Origin: Spinellus fusiger
Taxonomy: Eukaryota > Mucoromycota > Mucoromycetes > Mucorales > Phycomycetaceae
Assembly: GCA_025094145.1 (NCBI GenBank)
Contig: JALLLS010000037.1
Span: 124,001-188,000, forward strand
Length of the DNA stretch: 64,000 nucleotides
Direction: 5' to 3'
Shown: in pieces, positions 1 through 64,000 of the stretch
Layout of the letters: each line of letters starts with the position of its first letter
Numbering within the stretch: the first letter of the stretch is position 1
Position numbers and translations under genes: made by a program
Notes under the pieces: generated by a model
What the model saw: only the letters and a program-made list of their open reading frames with translations
Told to the model about the DNA's origin: nothing
Databases searched by the model: none

Positions 1-253
1 GAGGGAATGCACTTGGGGAGTAGCTATAGTCATACTATAGTATTAGCTATACTATTATAATAAACAATTTTATTCATAAATAATATATTTTACTGATAAT
101 ACAATTTGATATTGAGGTATCCACAAAAGGAAATATTATTTTTGATATCCGCAAACCTTTTGTTTTAAATGAAGTTTCATAAAAGGCAAGAAAATTTCAG
201 TTTTAAAGGGCGAAGATATCATCGCTTAAAGGCCAGAAAAATCTTCTGGTGTG
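1..253. repeat. Left copy of the inverted ~1.25 kb repeat unit (partial)
   Basis: This stretch matches 62815-63066 in the same orientation, including the GAGGGAATGCAC start, the TATCCACAAAAGGAAAT block and the terminal GGCCAGAAAAATCT..GGTGTG. The unit appears to end at 253 next to a TA (254-255). Its outer part lies beyond the window start. The same sequence reappears inverted from 2739, so the two copies face each other across about 2.5 kb. No coding capacity is visible here. Confidence 0.85.
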
Positions 254-849
254 TAGATATAGTATTCCTTTAAAACTCAGAAGTGAATATGAGAGACAGT
301 TTATCTCTTACAAGTTTGAAAAATTCTTAGAAAAGAAGGATAATTTACACAGATGTGCCTCTACAATGTATCCACAGTCTGGATAAGCCAAAACTACTGT
401 AAGGCTATTCAAATAAAAGTTATGAATATTAAAGACCCAGGCTCTTCACGCTCAGAAGTCATTGCTTTTGTAGATTGAATAATACAACTAGGAAAGTATA
501 AAAGTATTTGGAATATTTTATTCTATAGGCTCTTGAGAAATGCACCTTTTTTTTTTACCAAGCACTCCTTTTTGTTCCAAGTATTTTGAATAATATGATT
601 CAATGTCCATAATGTCACTTGGGGTCATCATGAATCAATTTTTTTTCACTTTATTCTTTATTCTTTATTAGTATATTTCCTCATATATTTTCCCCTTTAA
701 ATTGTTGTTTTTATATAAATATAAATATATATTCTTTTGAATTCTTCAAAATAGAGTGGATTCAAGAAAACATATAAACTGTCTATTATTAATATGGACA
801 TTTGGACAGCTCCGTTTTCTCTTCAATGAAATAAAGAATAATTTTTATT

Positions 850-2209
850 TTATACTTTCATAGATAATTCTACTTGATTATCATGGTTCAACAATAAATA
901 GCATTTTTGACAATAAGTATCATTCACCACTTCTAAAGGATGTGTTCGGCTTGGAACCACCAGTGGTTTATAAGTCTGTGAGTGGGTATTGAAACAACTC
1001 TCCATAGGAATTGAATCAGTACAGACCCCCACTCCAGCCTCCATAGTACCTGGATCTTGTTCTTCCACCTCATCTTTTTTCTTTTCTATTTTGAACTGTT
1101 TGATCAATAGAAACCCGGTGATGGTCCCTGTCTCCATCATATGTTAATTCCAACCTCTTGATTAGTCTTACTACCACTCTGATCACTTACAGTCAATGGC
1201 ATACATGTTAGAAGTTAGTCCATGAAGAACATCCAAAGAAATAAGAAGAGTGGTGATAATATTACTTGCAAAAACACCAATGCTATAATATTTTTAAAAT
1301 AAATAAATGGCAGGTTACAATGCATCTCATTGCTATGTTCCATTTTCCATGACTATGTTTCTCTGGAAATTCATTGAAATAATAAACACACACTTACAAG
1401 AAGATGATGCCGTTGGATAATAATATCTTCAAGGAAAAAGATCCAAATAGCCGATAATGGCGATAAATAGTCAATAAAAAGGCAAGGGATAAAAATGAAT
1501 TGCTAACAAGATCTAATCCAAGCTTAGCATAGGCCTGCCAGTGGACTTTTTTTTTAAGAAAAATAATATGGTAAACAAGAGCTTAATGAAATGCCATCTT
1601 GAACATGCATTCAACATAAACACTGACTTACGTCCTTCAATCTATAGTGTAAGTAGGCTCGATCGATAATAAAAATAACTTACTGAACAATTGCCAGCAA
1701 TGTCCATGATGGATACTGTTTTGCCAACAGTACTATAAATGCAAATAAGGGCAATATAACCCATGTTAATAAACAGTCCAATGACAATCACCCAAAGTGC
1801 CTTGTTGTAGCATATGTAGGCCTTATAGAGAAGAATTGTATGGACACAACATCCACTCAGATCAATGGCAATAATAGCCACCCAAAATCTCTATACAGAA
1901 GGGTGAGTTCTATTCTTGTTTCTATTTTGATAGTGCATAATTTACCACACCGCAGCCAATGGATAATAATGGACTGATTAATGTCGCAATAATAGAACTG
2001 TAAGAAAATAGCACGGCAGAGAAAACAGCCCAGTGCATAATTTTCCGAGTACGATACACCATCATTCCAGAGACAATGATTTGCCAAGTGGTGCAAGTAA
2101 AGCAAATACCCATGAACAGCATTGTAAAGATAGTTTCTTTCCAGAACCGTGACAATACTTCACTTTCGATAGGTAATCTTTCTGTAGAGGGATCTCCTAA
2201 TGAATTCAT
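850..2209 (-). CDS. Seven-transmembrane (receptor-like) membrane protein, six exons
   Basis: Exons on the minus strand: 2209-1946, 1890-1684, 1641-1632 (a 10-nt microexon), 1545-1398, 1282-1191 and 1127-850. All introns are GT-AG, and the joined frame is 999 nt, coding for 332 aa with no internal stop. Seven hydrophobic stretches are visible: about residues 28-50, 58-80, 90-112, 120-143, 165-185, 197-222 and 236-255. A cytosolic-looking basic/polar tail follows, with a late CxxC. The ATG at 2209 was chosen because the upstream in-frame ATG at 2278 would add only an odd hydrophobic leader. I do not recognise a named family. The layout resembles fungal 7TM receptor-like proteins, so a signalling role is inference. 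The gene sits between two inverted repeat units and looks intact, unlike the transposases beside it. The weakest splice call is the A-rich acceptor before 1545. Confidence 0.7.
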
Positions 2210-3447
2210 TTTTTGAAGAATAATAAGAAAGAAAACTAAAGTAAGTGTATGATAAAACACAAAGCAAGAAGAAAGCAAGAAGAATAAAAAGAGTAGTAAA
2301 TCAACAAGATTTTATGGCATTTCCTGCCTCACCCCTCTCTTTACTTCTTTTTCTTTTGATCTCTCTCTTCTTTTTCTTTTTTTGGTTTAATAGCTTCATA
2401 GTTAAACATTGCGTAACTGAGTACAAGGATAAAAAGTCCAAGTTCTTAGTACCAAGAAAGCAAAGATCTATCACTTGTTATATTCTGTCAAGAGAGTATA
2501 GGATACCCATGCCTCATTCTTTCAATAACAGATAAAAAGCAGTTTGAATGGTGCTCAGTGGGCAGTATGGCTCTGTGGATAATGTTGTTGATCTACCTCA
2601 GTACATCTCTTATTCATATTATTTAGTCGTTATTTTTCTTTTATTAATATGATTTTTTATAATTCACTTTCTATCCCACTTTCTCGGGTCTTTTGTTCGC
2701 TACATTTGGAATCTTTATCTTCATTTCTAGACTCCCTAGACTCCCAAAGATTTTCTGGCCTTTAAGCGGTGATGTCTCCTTCCTTTTGAGATCGGAAATA
2801 TATTACCTTTTATAGAGATGTGTTTAAAATCAAAGAATAGTGGGTATCTAAATAATTATTTCTTTTTGTGGATAGCTAAATATCAAATTGTATTATCAGT
2901 AAAATATATTGTCTATGAATAAAATTGTTAATGGATAAAATTGTTTATTATAGAAATATAGCTTCTGCCTAAGTGCATTCCCTCATAACAATAGAATCCA
3001 CACCCTAAAATCCTTGTGATTTATCCTTGGTAGATAGATAACTATGATCAAGAGTATAACATAGACACTATTGACCCTTTAGAAGACCATCTGAGACTGA
3101 CTTGAGAAGAGTCTTTATTTGTCTAATAACAATACAACGAGTGTCTTGTGGGTTGTAATGAGCTCAAGCCCAGATAAAAACACTGCTTACCTTTTTACTT
3201 CGAGAATAGTCCTTGGTGGTGTCTATCACTTCTTTCTATTGTTTCTCTTTGTTAATAATAGCACACCACCTTGATCAGTTATGTTCATCTTGACAAGTAC
3301 TTAGGTATCAATTTGTATGGACAGTATGGGAAATATCAAAAAGAGAGGATTATCAACACAAATAATGTTTCATAAATCATTCTGGTAATTTACTACACTA
3401 TAGACTCCACTCGTAAAATTCACACGTTGAAATTCACACGTCAAATA

Positions 3448-5158
3448 CAGTATTTTTACTTGGTTTTCGGACCTTTTCAAAAAAAATTCAGATGTTCTCT
3501 TTTCTTTTTTGAACGATTTCCATTCTAATTTCAGACGTTTACGAAAGGAAATTCAGACTTTATTTTAATTTAATCTCATTAGAAAGACATCTATCCCAAT
3601 AGGTTTCAGCATGTCTTACCCATCCTTTACAATCTTCTAAAGTAATCTGGTTAAAAGCTTCTGTAATTCGTGGAGTAAGTGTGTCTGATTTATCTAGAGG
3701 ATTTCTTCTGATAAGCTTTTTGATTTTTGACCAGCATTCTTCGATGGGGTTCAAAAAAGGTGAGTAAGGTGGCATAAAAAGAGGTCTGTAACCTCTATTG
3801 TTAATGGCATCGATAACGTAGCGAGAATGATGGACTCTACAGTTATCTAAAACTATAAATATGCCCTTTTTTTATGCTTATCCAAAACATCCATTACAGA
3901 TTCCATAAATTTTACAATGTGGTAAGCTGTAGTGCCTTTTGGAAGTTGTTTTGGCTTTTCTTTTCTTGCTTGTGTGTTGCTGGGGAAATTCCTTTTCAAT
4001 TTTTTCCGTGTCTGTTTTTTTCAAAGGCTCAACTTTTGAAAAGTTTATAACACCAAATGAAGCAATACAGCCAACAATGCTTATATTAATGCCCTTTTGG
4101 GTATGAACTTTCACAATTGCTGGATCACCTTTCTTTGACCACGCACGACCTCTAATCATTTGAGTATGGAATCCGGCTTCATCGACGAATACACAATTAT
4201 TTTGATAATCAACGCCAGCTGCTTTCCATTGAGTAATGATATCAAAACAAAGTTTGATAGTCCTAGGTGCATCTCGTTCAGCTGTATATTTCGATGCTTG
4301 CTTTAAGGATAAAGCACATTTTTCAACGATATGCTTATAAAGCCCACTGACAGAGACTTCCAGTCCAGGAAACGCCTCACACTTTAATCTTGCTTCTTCA
4401 AGGACAATCGACGGATTTTTATCGAAGAGTTCGACTAGAAATGCCGAGTGTTGAGGGAATAGTTTCTTTGGTTTATTGTTCGTTTTTCTTGGATTGTTTC
4501 CAGGCAGAATAGTGCCGTTACTAACATTGAATTCATTTATTAATTCATACGCAGTGCTTCGAGGAATACCGCACAGCATAGCGGCTTTTGGGACTGACAT
4601 GCCCTCTTCTTGCTTTACACGGATAAACCGTTCTATCTGATCTTGGGTATATTTCTTATATCTGTTTGACTGATATAATGATACAGCTCCCATGTCTTCA
4701 ACAATGTTATCCATAGCTTCTGCCATCTGTGTTGTTTGATTTTGCAACATCACATCGAAATTTACGATCATCTCAATATTGCCGTACTCAGTTGCTGTAG
4801 TCTCTAATTCCATCTCTTCATCAGTATCTTCTGTCAAGTATGCATCTTCTAATGGTTGGTATTTAATATAGTCCATCTTTTTATTTAGTTCAGTTTTTTT
4901 TTAAAAAAAAATTATAAATATGAAGTTCAAGGAGATAATGAAATAGGTTGATGAAATTTACTGCTTCTCTGAAATAAGAGTTTGTCTAAATTAAGTAAGG
5001 AAAAAGTCTGAAGATAAAAGAAACTCGTCCAATAAAAAATTGGAATTGTCTGAATTTCCTTTCGTAAACGTCTGAAATTAAAATGAAAATCGTCCAAAAA
5101 AGAAAAGAGAATGTCTGAATTTTTTTTGAAAAGGTCCGAAAACCAAGTAAAAATACTG
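3448..5158. mobile_element. Tc1/mariner-IS630 type DNA transposon with long terminal inverted repeats
   Basis: Terminal inverted repeats of about 113 bp start with CAGTATTTTTACTTGG at 3448 and end with its complement at 5158, flanked by TA at 3446-3447 and 5159-5160. The paralogous repeat at about 63755-63800 shows the uninterrupted site with a single TA, which confirms both insertion and TA target duplication. The element is 1711 bp and carries one minus-strand transposase, whose stop codon lies at the inner edge of the left repeat. Confidence 0.93.
3560..4876 (-). pseudogene. IS630/Tc1-type DDE transposase, broken by two frameshifts
   Basis: The N-terminal reading frame (start 4876) has an acidic leader, then a helix-turn-helix region around residues 80-115 that resembles DNA-binding domains of this family. 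The first catalytic aspartate lies in the motif VFVDEAGFH. Near 3985 the conserved frame shifts. It shifts again at the A7 run around 3867-3873, just before the second aspartate motif (IVLDNCRVHH). The third catalytic residue is in PYSPFLNPIEECW in the last frame. All three DDE motifs are therefore present but in three different frames, so the protein should not be made whole. The two changes could be assembly errors in homopolymers, but two independent ones favour true decay. Confidence 0.88.
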
Positions 5159-5654
5159 TAACTCACACTCTATTTGCCTTGGACTTAAGACAGTATTAGA
5201 AACAATACCCTGTTATCATTAAGTACTATCGTTGAGAACAGTTAAAATGAGTTAATTGAGGTGATTATGAATATTGAGTCAATGAATGGCTATACTATTA
5301 TTAATATAGTTGCATTTGGTTCTCTTTTCTGAACAATAATCACTAGAGTTAACTCTATAAGTTCTGTAATACATCTTTCTTAAGCAGTGTTATGCTGCAA
5401 ATAGTGTGGGCTTAAGGATAACACATTATGTTAAGAGAAGAATATCAGTGACTGAGTTGTAATTTTGGGGGATTCTTGTTCTATTTCTTGTCTTTACAGC
5501 CAATTCTATACTTTATAATTACAAAGTCAGTAGCTATTGCTAAAACAGGCAGGTAGAGTTTGAAATAGATTATATACACACCAAAAAGGTGTTCTTAAAC
5601 ATATTAGCCAGTCATAAGAATATTGCAGTTTTATTCTCAGAATATTTCTTTATA

Positions 5655-6974
5655 CAGTCACACAACTAGAAAGTATACGATTTTCATTTTTTGAAATCCT
5701 GAAAAAAACATGCTTTACGGATATAAATGTTACGACCTCAAAACACATACTAATGACTTCAAATTCAACACAAAGTTAGTTTAACATATTGTTTATATTA
5801 ATGTATATAAAAAAGTTTTTATTTAATATTTTTTTGGGCCACCTTTGGCAGCGATCCATCATTGAGCCAACTAGACGTTCGGCAAGATCAACGTGGATAT
5901 TTCCCTAAGTTTCTTCTAAAGCTATCTTGAGCTCATCAATATTATTAATACTGACTCTCTTTTTATCAATGAACTTATCAAGACAGCTCCAGAGATTTTC
6001 AATGGGCTTGAGATCAGGACTTTGTGCAGACCAGTAATTAAAACGCTTAATTACATGTGTGTTTTTATACCATGTTGTATAGCCACCTGTATGGCAGCTA
6101 GCTCCATCTTCTTGGAATATGAAGTCCTTATCCTCCTCATTCAATTCAATGAACCATGGCAGAAATTTTTCTGCCAAAATGTTGACATATACGTCCTGAT
6201 TCAGAGTGCCATCAATAAAGACCAAAGGCCCAAATCTGCCAGCCCAGAAACAGCTCCAGATCATTATGCTACCTTTCGTCCATTTGGTTGTAGGTATGAT
6301 ATGAGCAGCCTTATCTCTCTCTTCGATCTTTTGAATAACTCTGGCTCCTCCCTGGTAACCCTCTACTTCAAACCGTGACTCATCAGACCATACAACTCGT
6401 CTCCAGTCTTCAAGGGTCCAATTGACCTGTTCCTTCGCCCAATGAAGTCTTTTCTTCCTATTTTCTTCAGACAATCTTGGCTTGTGTGATTTAAAATAAG
6501 AATCATACTCATTCTGGTGTATGTATTTTATGAATATTGCTCTACAGATGATTATCTCATATGCCTTAAGTTCCAGATTTATATAGTTATAGGAGGCAAA
6601 TGGGTTGCCTCTTAGAATGGCCTCAAATCGTCTGAGATCTCTTTCCTTAAGTTTTTCTAGTGTACCAGAACTAGGCCTTGGTAGAGGTGTACCATTAGTC
6701 TTGATTCTACTAATGATCTTCTGGACAGCAGACTTGCTAATGCCAAGGACCTTTGAAATGCTACCCATGGAGTATTTTTCTTTTTTAAGCCATTAAACAC
6801 CCCAGTACTCTCTTTCTTCAAGCTTATCATAAACTCTATAGTTTTTAGTTGAGGATTCTGCGTTTGACATTTGAGATTGCTTAATGAAATGTGATTCAGT
6901 GGTAAAAAGAAGAAGAATCATGTTTAAAAATGTATAGATTATGGGGTCGTATACTTTCTAATTCTGTGTGGCTG
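5655..6974. mobile_element. Tc1-like DNA transposon (1.3 kb)
   Basis: The ends are CAGTCACACAACTAGAAAG at 5655 and a matching inverted copy ending in CTG at 6974. TA duplications lie at 5653-5654 and 6975-6976. Length (1320 bp), TA target and an internal transposase are typical of Tc1-like elements. The uninterrupted target is visible in the paralogous unit at about 61808-61825, where ctttata-tattcc runs through. It is a second, independent insertion in the same host repeat. Confidence 0.9.
5776..6870 (-). pseudogene. Tc1-like transposase with two in-frame stops
   Basis: The start at 6870 (MSNAESST) is followed in the same frame by a TAA at 6795-6793. The frame then continues through a helix-turn-helix segment (SISKVLGISKSAVQKII), a catalytic Asp motif (VVWSDESRF), the second Asp in FIFQEDGASCHTG and the Glu motif QSPDLKPIENLW. 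A TAG at about 5907-5905 interrupts the C-terminus, which otherwise continues to a Tc1-like end (RCQRWPKK). No frameshift is seen, only two point stops, so the copy looks young but inactive. An open frame of 287 aa from 6768 could make a protein lacking its N-terminus. Confidence 0.88.
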
Positions 6975-7001
6975 TATATCCCAAAAATCTTTGGGTGTGT
7001 A

Positions 7002-7459
7002 CAATGCTAAATATTAATTATAACTCTAAATCATCTATATAAATACATTTATCTAATTATCTATCAATCAGAGTATGACATTTATCAGAAGACAGGCCAA
7101 TGGACTATTGATTGAGTTTATTGAATGATCTATAGACAATGAATAAAGTTTTTCTTGGAGTCATGTATTTCTGCATTTAATTCGCTTGCCTTAAAAATCC
7201 TATGAATATGGGTCTGCTGTGGATGACTTTTGGAATACAGTCAGCCATTCCCACTGACAGCCTCTTTCTATCTTTATGAATTTCAAAATATTAAAGTTCA
7301 AGTCCCGTAGTTTCACATTTACAAAGGCACAATAATAGTCCTGTGCTATTGCTTCTCTATTTCTTCTTTTCCTTTCTTACTAGCATGATAAGAGCACTTC
7401 TTCCCACAAACAGCGCTAAACTATACTCTCTTCCTGTTTTATTATCGAGAAAATCAACA
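7002..7459. other. Intergenic, 5' region of the SSADH gene
   Basis: This AT-rich stretch holds no convincing gene, only short ORFs without family features. It presumably contains the promoter of the gene starting at 7460; I cannot point to specific elements. Confidence 0.5.
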
Positions 7460-9324
7460 ATGTCCACACAAGCAGTAATCTCAAAGGTATTTCTTTAATA
7501 GAATGTTATTGACTGTTATAACATAACCCTAATTCAACACGTCCATCTTTTATAGTTATCTGATCCAGAACTGTTTCGTCAAAAGGCATTCATTAACAAT
7601 GAGTGGGTGGGCTCTGATGATACATTTGATGTCTATGGTAGTGTACTTGCATTAGTATTGTTGTTTGTACAGGGAGAACAATCTCTCCTCTTCTCATTTA
7701 TATGTACTTACTGGTATTGCCTTTAGATCCTGCAACAAACCAAGTAATTGGCAGTGTACCAGACTTGGGAGTTACAGAAACAAAAGAAGCAATTATCCAT
7801 GCATCTAATGCCTTCAAGACCTGGTCGCGCACAACAGCAAAAGTGCGTCATGATTTGCTCAAGAAATGGTCTGATGCTATTATGACACACCAACAAGACC
7901 TTGCTACTATTTTGACATGGGAAAATGGCAAAGTAGAGAAAGAAGCTCAGGGTGAGATTGCTTATGGTGCGTCTTATTTTGAATGGTTCGCAGAAGAATC
8001 TGTGCGTTCATATGGTCATGTCATTCCTTCCTTTTCCCCTGATCAAAGATCCATTACTATCAAGCAACCTGTGGGTGTGGTTGGTATTATTACACCATGG
8101 AGTAAGTTAATGATAGAATAAAATGTATTTGGGAGAGAGAGAAACTCATCAACAAATGATAGACTTTCCTACAGCTATGATTGCTCGTAAAGTGTCTGCT
8201 GCGCTTGCTGCTGGATGCAGTGTGGTGATCAAACCTGCTGCAGAAACTCCTTATTCTGCACTGGCACTATGTGAATTAGCAAAGCGTGTAGGCATTCCTG
8301 CTGGTGTGGTGAATGTAGTCACTACTGAGAAGCAGGTGGCTAGTATTGGCAAGGAATTGTGCACACATCCTACCGTGCACAAAATCTCATTCACTGGATC
8401 TGTAAGTTAAATAAGATATTTCTATGAACAAGGTTGCTTTTAGAAGATTTAGGTAGCTAATATGTAATGATTAGACACAAGTGGGTAAGTTGTTAATGGA
8501 ACAGTCATCCTCGACAATGAAGAAACTGTCAATGGAACTTGGTGGAAATGCAGCCTTTATTGTGTTTGATGATGCAGACATTGATGCAGCTGTGAATGGT
8601 AAGAAATATATTCTATGTTTCGTGGGACATTTGCTCCTACTTATATTTATCTGTTATAGGTCTAATCATGGGAAAATTCAGAGGCACAGGACAAACATGT
8701 GTCTCTCCTAATCGTATTTATGTTCAGAAGAGCATTTACAACAAGTTTGCTTGCCAATTAGCAGATAAATTAAATGATTTTAAAACCGGCAATGGATTCG
8801 ACAAGAGCAGCACACATGGCCCACTGATCAATGAGAAGGCAGTAGAGAAAGTGAAGGCCCATGTATCTGATGCCCTGGAGAAGGGAGCTACTGCCCTTGT
8901 AGGTGGCAAACATCTTGGTGGCAACTTCTTTGAACCTACCATCCTTACTGGCATGACAGCCGACATGAGAATTGCCAAAGAGGAGATATTTGGACCTGTT
9001 GCTGCCTTGTTTGAGTTTTCAACAGAAGAAGAAGTTATTGAGTTGGCAAATAATACACCTTTTGGACTGGCAGCCTACTTTTATTCTCGTGACATTGGAA
9101 GAGTATGGAGGGTGTCAGAGGCATTGGAGACTGGTATGGTGGGTGCGAACTCTGGCGTTGTTTCTAGCTGCACCACACCCTTTGGTGGTGTCAAAGAGAG
9201 TGGAATGGGTAGAGAAGGTAAATATTACTTATGGTTTTGATGTGTCTGACTATTATTCTTAGGTTCATCGTATGGTCTAGATGATTACACTGTCCTAAAA
9301 TACATTAACATGGGTGGTGTATAA
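7460..9324 (+). CDS. UGA2: Succinate-semialdehyde dehydrogenase (NAD(P)+), seven exons
   Basis: Exons: 7460-7486, 7556-7637, 7727-8101, 8163-8401, 8475-8598, 8660-9217 and 9263-9324. The joined frame is 1467 nt (488 aa), the usual length for this aldehyde dehydrogenase family. Diagnostic segments in order are [35 protein letters not shown], the general-base Glu in ELGGN (about residue 262), the catalytic Cys in GQTCVSPNR (about residue 296), EEIFGPV and [14 protein letters not shown]. It oxidises succinate semialdehyde to succinate, the last step of the GABA shunt; family knowledge favours cytosolic or mitochondrial action, but no clear targeting peptide is seen. All introns are short GT-AG. 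Related aldehyde dehydrogenases cannot be fully excluded. Confidence 0.93.
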
Positions 9325-9600
9325 AGGCTCTTCTTTTGTAATCATACAGACACTAAATAAAGATATTCATTTTGCTAATATGCATTAATTAAATAGCATA
9401 ATAAACAATAAGAATTTACTAAAGAATAGAGTCTCTATTATCTATTTAATATATGAGATAAAATTACATAATTATGACATCAAAACAGGCCATGAATCAT
9501 TCACACTGCTCTTCAACACAGCCAAAGATCTTTTCTGATATTTAAACCTCCCTTTTGTTAATCTTTTTTAAAAGAAAAAAGAAAAAAGAATCGCCTTTTA

Positions 9601-61020: not shown

Positions 61021-61795
61021 AACAAGTAATATATGCCCCATTCTTATTTTTTCTTTCCATTTTCAACTATATATTTTTCAAGGACGTGACTGTATAAGGT
61101 AATATTGTCTGACTATAGATGACAATTTAACAGCTATAATTATTGATCCAGATAAAAGTGTGCCGATTAAAGGCAGTATAAATTGAATGGGGTATTCCTA
61201 TTTTTGATAGGTGATTGGCTCTTGAGCCAATACTTTAATTATAAAAATAAAAATAAAACATTGTCTGTAAAATAGATTTAAATAAATCCGTAAACTTGCA
61301 GAAAAAAACAAATATTAAGCCGCCCCATCCAGTACTTTTATCTCTATTTATGGTGTTGAGGTTGCCTATAAATAAACTAAAATTATTAAATCAAATTATT
61401 TACAAAATTAATGCTTTGTAAAGAGAAATATTCACGCCGAAAAGTATGAGGATGTGAATGTTTTTCTTCTTATTTTTCTTATCCAGCCTAACTATTTGAA
61501 ATTTAGTGTGGAGGTGTTTTCGTTTTGACAAGAACTCTACCTCATTGAATGTTTTTGAATCCATTTCCAGCCTCATATTTTCTACCAATGTTTCTTTTCT
61601 TTTTTAGAGTCCTTTAAGGTGGTTTCAGGTATATATTTTTTTACTCTCTGGAAATTTCACTTGCAATTATTGTTTGAAAAAATCTCTTTCATTATAGCTC
61701 ATGTTGATCTTATGACTAAAAAGACTATTCCCGTGATTATAGCTGAAGGAAATATTTAATTTTTTTTCTTCTCAATTTTGACTTTATTATTACTA
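61021..61795. other. AT-rich spacer before the palindrome
   Basis: No supported gene; a 62-codon ORF on the minus strand (61400-61588) lacks recognisable features. Ends at the TA (61794-61795) that abuts the repeat unit. Confidence 0.5.
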
Positions 61796-63066
61796 CACAC
61801 CAAGAGATTTTGGAATATATAAAGAAAAGTCCTAATAATAAAATTGCAATATTTTACTGGTTGGCTAATGTGTTTGAAGGGGCCTTTCCGTTGTCTAAAT
61901 AAACTATTTCAAACTCTACTTGCCTGTTTTAGCAATAGCTACTGACTTTGCAATTAGAAAGTATAGAATTGGCTGTAAAGATTTTTTTTTATAAAAGAAT
62001 TGGCTGTAAAGACAAGAAATAGAACAAGAATCACCCCAAAATTGCAACTCAGTCACTGATATTCTTCTCTTAACATAATGTGTTATCCTTAAGCCCACAC
62101 TATTTGCAGCATAACACTGCTTAAGAAAGATGTATTACAGAACTTATAGAGTTAACTCTAGTGGTCATTGTCCATAAAATAGAACCAAATTCACTTACAT
62201 TGAGAACTGTATAGTCATTTATTGACTCAATATTCATAATCACTTTAACAACTACTTCATTTTAACTGGTATTAACAGTGGTGCTTAATGATAACAGGGT
62301 ATTGTTTCTAATAATGTCCTTTAGGCCCAAGACAAAAAGAGTGTGAATTATTTGACTTGTGAATTATTTGACTTGTGAGTTTTATGAGCGGAGGCTAGTA
62401 TATTTATCACCAGAATAGAGAAATATAAATTATTATTTGTTTTGATACTCCCCTCTTTTTGTTATTTCCCACACTGCACATACAACTCAACACCCAAGTA
62501 ATCGTCAATATGAGCATAACTGAGCAAGTTAATGTGCCATTATTAACAAAGAGAAACAATAGAAGGAGGTGATAGACACTACCAATGACTATTCTAGTGA
62601 TAAAAAGGTAAACAGTGTCTTCATCTGGGCTATAGCTTATTCTAATGTACAAGATACTCATTGTATTGTTATTAGGCAAGTAAATACTCTTTTCAAGTCA
62701 GTCCCAGGTGGTCTTGTACAAGGTCAATAATGTATAGGGTATACTCCTGAGCATAGTTATCTATCTCCCAAGGATAAATCACAACACTTTTAGGGTGTGG
62801 ATTCTATTGCTATGAGGGAATGCACTTGGGCAGTAGCTATAGTCATAATATAGTATTAGCTACATTATTATAATAAACAATTTTATTCATAAACAATATA
62901 TTTTACTGATAATACAATTTGATACTGAGGTATCCACAAAAGGAAATATTATTTTTGATATCCATAAACCTTTCGTTTTAAATGCAGTTCCATAAAAGAC
63001 AAGAAATTTTCAGTTTTAAAGGTCGAAGATATCATCGCTTAAAGGCCAGAAAAATCTCCTGGTGTG
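61796..63066 (-). repeat. Repeat unit, left arm of a large palindrome (1271 bp)
   Basis: Begins CACACCAAGAGATTTTGG after TA (61794-61795) and ends CCAGAAAAATCTCCTGGTGTG before TA (63067-63068). The ends are thus short inverted repeats beside TA dinucleotides. It contains a 90-codon minus-strand ORF (62407-62679) with hydrophobic stretches, which I do not recognise; the same ORF is broken in the 3-5 kb copy, so it is unlikely to be a conserved gene. Confidence 0.85.
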
Positions 63067-63068
63067 TA

Positions 63069-64000
63069 CACACCCAAAGATATTTTTGGCCTTTAAGCGA
63101 TAATATTTCCTTCTTTTTACGTCACGGATTTCTTTCTTTTTATGGATATGTGATTAAAGTCAAAGGTCTGCAAGTATCCAAATTATTATTTCCTTTTGTA
63201 GTATACCTCAGTATCAAATTGTATTATCAGTAAAATATATTGTTTATGAATAAAATTGTTTATTATAATAATGTAGCTAATACTATATTATGACTATAGC
63301 TACTGCCCAAGTGCATTCCCTCATAGCAATAGAATCCACACCCTAAAAGTGTTGTGATTTATCCTTGGGAGATAGATAACTATGCTCAGGAGTATACCCT
63401 ATACATTATTGACCTTGTACAAGACCACCTGGGACTGACTTGAAAAGAGTATTTACTTGCCTAATAACAATACAATGAGTATCTTGTACATTAGAATAAG
63501 CTATAGCCCAGATGAAGACACTGTTTACCTTTTTATCACTAGAATAGTCATTGGTAGTGTCTATCACCTCCTTCTATTGTTTCTCTTTGTTAATAATGGC
63601 ACATTAACTTGCTCAGTTATGCTCATATTGACGATTACTTGGGTGTTGAGTTGTATGTGCAGTGTGGGAAATAACAAAAAGAGGGGAGTATCAAAACAAA
63701 TAATAATTTATATTTCTCTATTCTGGTGATAAATATACTAGCCTCCGCTCATAAAACTCACAAGTCAAATAATTCACAAGTCAAATAATTCACACTCTTT
63801 TTGTCTTGGGCCTAAAGGACATTATTAGAAACAATACCCTGTTATCATTAAGCACCACTGTTAATACCAGTTAAAATGAAGTAGTTGTTAAAGTGATTAT
63901 GAATATTGAGTCAATAAATGACTATACAGTTCTCAATGTAAGTGAATTTGGTTCTATTTTATGGACAATGACCACTAGAGTTAACTCTATAAGTTCTGTA
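63069..64000 (+). repeat. Repeat unit, right arm of the palindrome (cut by window end)
   Basis: Mirror image of 62136-63066 about position 63067.5, with near-identity away from the centre; the 90-codon ORF recurs here without change at 63457-63729. The final 300 bases reach the window edge still in register, so the true end lies outside. Confidence 0.9.

What the first reader, a model, noticed from the sequence alone, without database searches (positions are those of the whole stretch)
1..6999. Intact 7-transmembrane gene held between two inverted copies of a TIR-ended repeat unit
The two copies (to 253, and 2739-6999 minus insertions) face each other across 254-2738, which holds one complete six-exon 7TM gene on the minus strand. 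At 61.8-64 kb the same unit forms a facing pair with nothing in between. This suggests a composite or foldback-type element able to capture a host gene, or insertion of two units on either side of a gene. The gene is open throughout while nearby transposases are dead, so the cargo may be under selection. Observed: repeat alignment and the open gene. Inferred: capture and selection.
Basis: partly seen in the sequence, partly recalled or inferred. Interest (0 to 1): 0.75.

Follow-up and report, generated by a model that had tools for sequence, protein, structure and literature searches.

The report
Gene between two independent transposon insertions
An old, ordinary fungal membrane-protein gene has a copy of a very common short mobile element on each side, and the two copies look like separate old insertions rather than a vehicle that captured the gene.

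Summary
The geometry is real. In Spinellus fusiger (Mucorales), a 332-aa, six-exon membrane-protein gene (window 850-2209, minus) lies between two inverted copies of a ~1.25-kb TIR-ended unit: the left is C129:123030-124255 (ends at window 255); the right is 2737-7001, split by two other transposons. Capture is not supported. (1) The unit is abundant: 819 right termini in 38 Mb, so about 11 facing pairs with gaps up to 2.5 kb are expected by chance. (2) The copies are only 82.5-83.6% alike throughout, and neither is among the 40 scored relatives of the other. (3) The gene has no strong paralogue, has relatives across Mucorales, and its Phycomyces nitens homologue is on a contig of the same length (582,831 bp) as that of its ALDH neighbour, so the linkage looks ancestral. 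Most likely the units landed beside a resident gene.

The 61.8-kb facing pair is a one-off junction: an 891-bp identical core between ends 76-85% alike. Homogenised inverted pairs recur elsewhere, two around host genes; I read them as gene conversion, possibly with inversion. That side observation is more interesting than the finding.

The parts
1..255 (+). Right end of the left unit; the whole unit is C129:123030-124255, 1,226 bp, left end outside the window
850..2209 (-). Six-exon membrane-protein gene, 332 aa; exons 2209-1946, 1890-1684, 1641-1632, 1545-1398, 1282-1191, 1127-850
   Evidence: homologues; alignment
2737..3446 (-). Right unit, first piece (right-end half; terminal TIR partly decayed)
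3446..5160 (-). Nested DDE-type (IS630-like) transposon, 113-bp TIRs 96% alike, TA at both ends, coding frame split in two; Pfam matches are below the curated cut-offs
5159..5654 (-). Right unit, second piece
5653..6976 (-). Nested Tc1-type transposon (HTH_Tnp_Tc3_2 above cut-off, DDE_3 just below), TA at both ends
6977..7001 (-). Right unit, outer left-end terminus (about 25 bp)
7384..9332 (+). Aldehyde dehydrogenase gene region next to the block; tandem paralogue at C129:116307-118248, 81.9% DNA identity
61794..63068 (+). Unit U1 of the facing pair
63067..64000 (-). Unit U2 of the facing pair (continues to C129:188312)

Best explanation
Two copies of a very abundant, apparently non-autonomous, TIR-ended DNA element (about 1.25 kb, TA at both ends) inserted independently on the two sides of a resident, ancient Mucorales membrane-protein gene. 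The facing orientation is coincidence. The right copy was later hit by two other transposons. The gene stays open because it is an ordinary conserved gene. Shown: copy number, independent divergence, lack of a strong paralogue, conservation, contig-level linkage to ALDH. Inferred: the order of events, mobilisation by a Tc1/mariner-type transposase in trans, and that the gene is expressed.
For: Copy number 819 right termini, 10.9 facing pairs expected. Left vs right unit 581/695 = 83.6% and 405/491 = 82.5%, even along the length (79-89% per 100 bp); longest exact run 44 bp, inside the 24-138 bp range of 54 non-partner comparisons among 11 units. The left unit's best scored relatives are elsewhere (right end: 96% at C133; body: 91% at C142, and 95% over part of it at C123), and the right unit is in neither list. 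The right unit's best is C119 at 85%, and the left unit is not in that list. Gene: five of six matches in its own genome are its own exons; the sixth is weak (39%, one stop). Relatives at 40-58% identity over 60-95% of the query in Phycomyces (two species), Cokeromyces, Syncephalastrum, Cunninghamella and one unnamed source. The P. nitens relative and the only P. nitens ALDH in the listing are both on a contig of 582,831 bp; Cunninghamella blakesleeana shows the same for a 9,117,306-bp contig, which is weaker. The GGTGTGTACACACC junction occurs once.
Against: A MIT-domain gene about 17 kb away is on other contigs in both Phycomyces species (288,546 and 720,041; 7,033,412 and 2,187,738), so synteny is broken somewhere nearby. 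Only 40 of 1,315-1,618 candidates were scored in each of the three unit searches. The ALDH listing was cut at E 1e-200 and only 8,000 candidates were scored. A very old composite whose arms have diverged since is not strictly excluded.
Confidence: 0.88

Rival explanations
1. Composite or foldback transposon: two units act as one element's ends and carried the gene to this place.
For: Inverted geometry. Composite-like structures do exist in this genome: C176, C143 and C85 carry a shared structure with inverted arms of 3.0-3.2 kb (C176, C143; at least 2.1 kb in C85, whose fetched stretch ends inside the arm); C176 and C143 are about 97% alike, C85 and C143 99.5% alike, and in C176 and C143 the outer ends are the TIRs of the nested DDE-type element, with TA.
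Against: The window arms are 82.5-83.6% alike and not in each other's scored lists. The gene has no strong paralogue, has relatives in other Mucorales, and ALDH looks linked to it in P. nitens. In the C176-type structures the outer ends are not unit ends, and the units there point right end outward, opposite to the window. No duplication beyond TA is visible around the block, but TA would be expected either way.
Confidence: 0.04
2. The unit pair is a recombination-maintained bracket: gene conversion and occasional crossing-over between the inverted copies flips the gene in between; the window pair is a decayed example.
For: Other inverted pairs are homogenised: C46 1224/1226, C157 1225/1233, C135 1202/1214, and mosaic tracts at C116, C187 and the 61.8-kb pair.
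Against: The window pair itself shows no homogenised tract (longest exact run 44 bp).
Confidence: 0.05
3. Old inverted segmental duplication of one unit, rather than two insertions.
For: A direct segmental duplication that includes part of a unit occurs about 60 kb away (U2/U3, 1,306 bp at 99.46%).
Against: The printed flanks of the two window units do not resemble each other by eye, no match between the two flanking regions other than the units themselves, the ALDH and other repeats was listed, and the divergence is that of unrelated copies.
Confidence: 0.03

Closest known systems
Non-autonomous TIR elements of the Tc1/mariner-IS630 group (MITE-like)
   Same: TIR ends, TA at both ends, high copy number, no reading frame above 97 aa in the seven units checked
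   Different: About 1.25 kb is longer than classic MITEs (size limit recalled); a transposase with matching TIRs and a clean empty site were not found
Pack-MULE / Pack-TYPE gene-capturing elements (features recalled)
   Same: Gene sequence between TIR-bearing sequences
   Different: Complete intron-bearing gene without a strong source paralogue, between two whole elements rather than inside one
Composite transposons / foldback elements
   Same: Two inverted copies around a segment
   Different: Arms independently diverged; the exact junction of the empty facing pair occurs once
Gene conversion between inverted repeats, as in human Y palindromes (PMC3723533; title and start of abstract seen in the listing)
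   Same: Would explain near-identical inverted pairs with diverged ends elsewhere in this genome
   Different: Not seen in the window's gene-flanking pair

Membership tests
Tc1/mariner-type non-autonomous element | TA at both ends | tested here: met
   13 of 20 units as cut have TA at both ends; in 6 more the cut was one base off and the TA is there; in 1 (L026:119-1337) the right end was not reached. Partly circular, since the reference unit used to find them starts and ends with TA
Tc1/mariner-type non-autonomous element | TA is a target-site duplication shown by an empty site | tested here: inconclusive
   joined flanks of 20 units; the only spanning matches were self-matches or a spurious match to another unit end, no genuine empty site
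Tc1/mariner-type non-autonomous element | Matching autonomous transposase | not tested
   No search was made for a transposase element with these TIRs; the two nested transposons have other TIRs
Classic MITE | Short (recalled: usually below about 800 bp) | tested here: not met
   Seven units measured 1,226-1,275 bp
Composite / foldback transposon | Arms of common origin moving together (high mutual identity) | tested here: not met
   82.5-83.6%, not in each other's scored lists
Composite / foldback transposon | Target duplication around the whole block | tested here: inconclusive
   Only TA seen, which single insertions also give
Pack-TYPE gene capture | Captured gene has a source copy elsewhere | tested here: not met
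   No paralogue except one weak 39% hit with a stop
Seven-transmembrane protein | Seven membrane helices | tested here: inconclusive
   No Pfam family at E up to 1; simple hydropathy gives 5 strong segments; the model of the P. blakesleeanus homologue shows six long helices plus shorter ones, but mean pLDDT is 50.4

The most novel reading that the evidence does not exclude
In this genome, inverted pairs of the unit 9-20 kb apart act as recombination partners that keep each other nearly identical and may invert the host DNA between them (C116: ubiquitin-hydrolase and MIZ-finger exons; C187: MBOAT and possibly WD-type exons; C46; C157). The gene in the window would sit in an old, decayed bracket of this kind.
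Probability: 0.1. Interest if true: 0.5.

Novelty: new member of a known kind. Interest (0 to 1): 0.2.

Why it matters
It shows that a striking gene-between-inverted-repeats picture is expected by chance when a mobile element has several hundred copies in 38 Mb. The by-product, homogenised inverted pairs of one element with diverged tips, offers a natural test bed for ectopic gene conversion and inversion in an early-diverging fungus.

Tried and rejected
Foldback-module idea for the 61.8-kb pair: rejected because the exact junction occurs once in the genome and the two units have distinct ends. The idea that the unit is the long TIR of one larger element: the C46, C116 and C187 pairs have similar 9-11 kb gaps, but the C116 and C187 interiors hold different host genes and identity breaks inside the unit at C116 (98.4% over 669 bp, then 78.9% over 418) and C187 (98.8% over 507 bp, then 77.8% over 194), so homogenisation fits better; left open for the C176/C143/C85 structure. 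Local hopping as the source of near-identical pairs: not excluded for C46 and C157. Of the 10 distinct pairs within 25 kb and within 2% in bit score are inverted and 3 direct (C14, C1, one at C172); equal score is only a proxy, and the pairs at C14, C1, C121 and C172 were not fetched. Rfam found nothing. The structure model was too weak for a fold search, which I did not run. Linkage of a MIT gene gave a negative, of ALDH a positive. Literature: 7 searches; I saw listings and starts of abstracts, and opened no paper. The two papers that name S. fusiger are, by title, about other matters.

Full report
What is there. The window is C129:124001-188000 of a 38.08-Mb genome in 197 contigs. The protein database places the gene on a 328,353-bp contig of Spinellus fusiger, the same length as C129; Spinellus is in Phycomycetaceae, Mucorales. 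The left unit runs C129:123030-124255 and ends at window 255. The right unit runs 2737-7001 on the other strand and is split by a DDE-type, IS630-like element (3446-5160) and a Tc1-type element (5653-6976) (the Pfam matches of the first are below the curated cut-offs). The 2,481-bp gap holds one gene on the minus strand with six exons (850-2209), GT/AG introns and 332 codons.

The gene. It has no Pfam family at E up to 1. Seven database proteins match: one is the public S. fusiger model (260 aa) and six are relatives in Phycomyces blakesleeanus, P. nitens, Cokeromyces, Syncephalastrum, Cunninghamella and one unnamed source, at 40-58% identity over 60-95% of the query. The public model uses a different last splice site and ends early; the exon 6 used here gives the stretch D-W-x-I-T-G/S-x-L-L-I-K-Q-F found in all six relatives. 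In its own genome five of six matches are its own exons; the sixth is weak (39%, one stop). The label 7TM is plausible, not proven. dN/dS and expression were not tested.

The unit. A right-end pattern with 27 fixed positions and up to 3 mismatches occurs 819 times (402 forward, 417 reverse; reversed-pattern control 0). Uniform placement predicts 10.9 facing right-end pairs with gaps up to 2,485 bp. Within C129:115001-194500, eight unit-derived copies or fragments were found, so this neighbourhood is rich in them. The longest stop-to-stop frame in each of seven units is 57-97 aa.

Were the two units once one? They are 83.6% (581/695) and 82.5% (405/491) identical in the two comparable pieces, evenly along their length, with a longest exact run of 44 bp. 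Eleven units compared in all pairs gave, for the 54 non-partner pairs, 82-91% identity and longest runs of 24-138 bp. Neither window unit appears in the other's list of scored relatives (40 of 1,315-1,618 candidates scored each time). They behave like unrelated copies.

Did the gene move? The P. nitens relative of the gene and the P. nitens ALDH closest to the one that adjoins the block are both recorded on a contig of 582,831 bp; C. blakesleeana shows the same coincidence for a 9,117,306-bp contig, which is weaker because that contig is very long. This is a length fingerprint, not a reading of the contig. Against it, a MIT-domain gene about 17 kb away is on other contigs in both Phycomyces species. 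ALDH has a tandem paralogue on the far side of the block (81.9% DNA identity, same strand), so the gene lies between two ALDH copies.

The 61.8-kb pair. Two units meet right end to right end sharing one TA. The exact junction GGTGTGTACACACC occurs once in the genome. The two units are exactly identical over 891 bp in the middle but 76-85% alike per 100 bp in both end parts. U2 is also part of a direct duplication with a third unit 5.3 kb away: at least 1,306 bp at 99.46%, covering flank and the first 430 bp of the unit, and running to the end of the stretch held. This mosaic is what recombination between unit copies would leave.

Elsewhere. For C157 (1225/1233) and C46 (1224/1226) the inverted partner is far closer than the next best of the 40 scored relatives (86% and 88%). 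C135 (1202/1214) and C31 (970/970 over the shared part) are also near-identical pairs; for these I compared only the 11-unit set, where C135 reaches at most 90% and C31 at most 89% with others. C116 and C187 are mosaics: 98.4% over 669 bp then 78.9% over 418, and 98.8% over 507 bp then 77.8% over 194. C116 holds exons matching UCH (above cut-off) and MIZ finger (just below); C187 holds MBOAT (above) and a WD-type match (below). Of 10 distinct pairs within 25 kb with bit scores within 2% are inverted and 3 direct; this is a proxy on a scored subset and no clear excess. Assembly error in long inverted repeats cannot be excluded.

Mechanism and confidence. Independent insertion of two TA-flanked non-autonomous elements next to a resident gene: 0.88. 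Shown are abundance, independent divergence, lack of a strong paralogue, and conservation. The mobilising transposase, the insertion order and gene expression are inferred. The finding is ordinary as stated; the homogenised inverted pairs deserve a separate look.

Noticed in passing
window 61794-63068 and 63067-C129:188312 (L011:2067-3312): Facing units share an 891-bp exactly identical core between ends 76-85% alike, and the second unit is also part of a direct duplication of at least 1,306 bp with a third unit 5.3 kb away.
   Followed up: partly
C46:262246-273710, C157:117711-140207, C116:89881-102049, C187:130417-141298: Inverted unit pairs 9-20 kb apart that are near-identical wholly (C46, C157) or in part (C116, C187); C116 and C187 lie around host genes.
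   Followed up: partly
C176:667306-675005, C143:224162-233368, C85:2501-9889: Composite structure at three loci: inverted arms of 3.0-3.2 kb at C176 and C143 (at least 2.1 kb at C85, cut by the fetched stretch), apparently a whole DDE-type element plus a unit; outer ends are the DDE-type TIRs with TA at C176 and C143. The C176 centre has a reading frame that looks to me, from recall, like a serine recombinase, but Pfam gave no match.
   Followed up: partly
unit termini, positions 9-11: The triplet after TACACACC is mostly AGG or CAA in the places listed; the paired units at C157 and C187 differ there at their left ends while identical just inside. Unexplained.
   Followed up: no
window 1127-850: The public protein model of the gene (P0001, 260 aa) ends early because of a different last acceptor; conserved residues support the longer model.
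   Followed up: yes
C129:116307-118248 and window 7384-9332: Tandem ALDH paralogues, 81.9% DNA identity, flank the gene block.
   Followed up: partly
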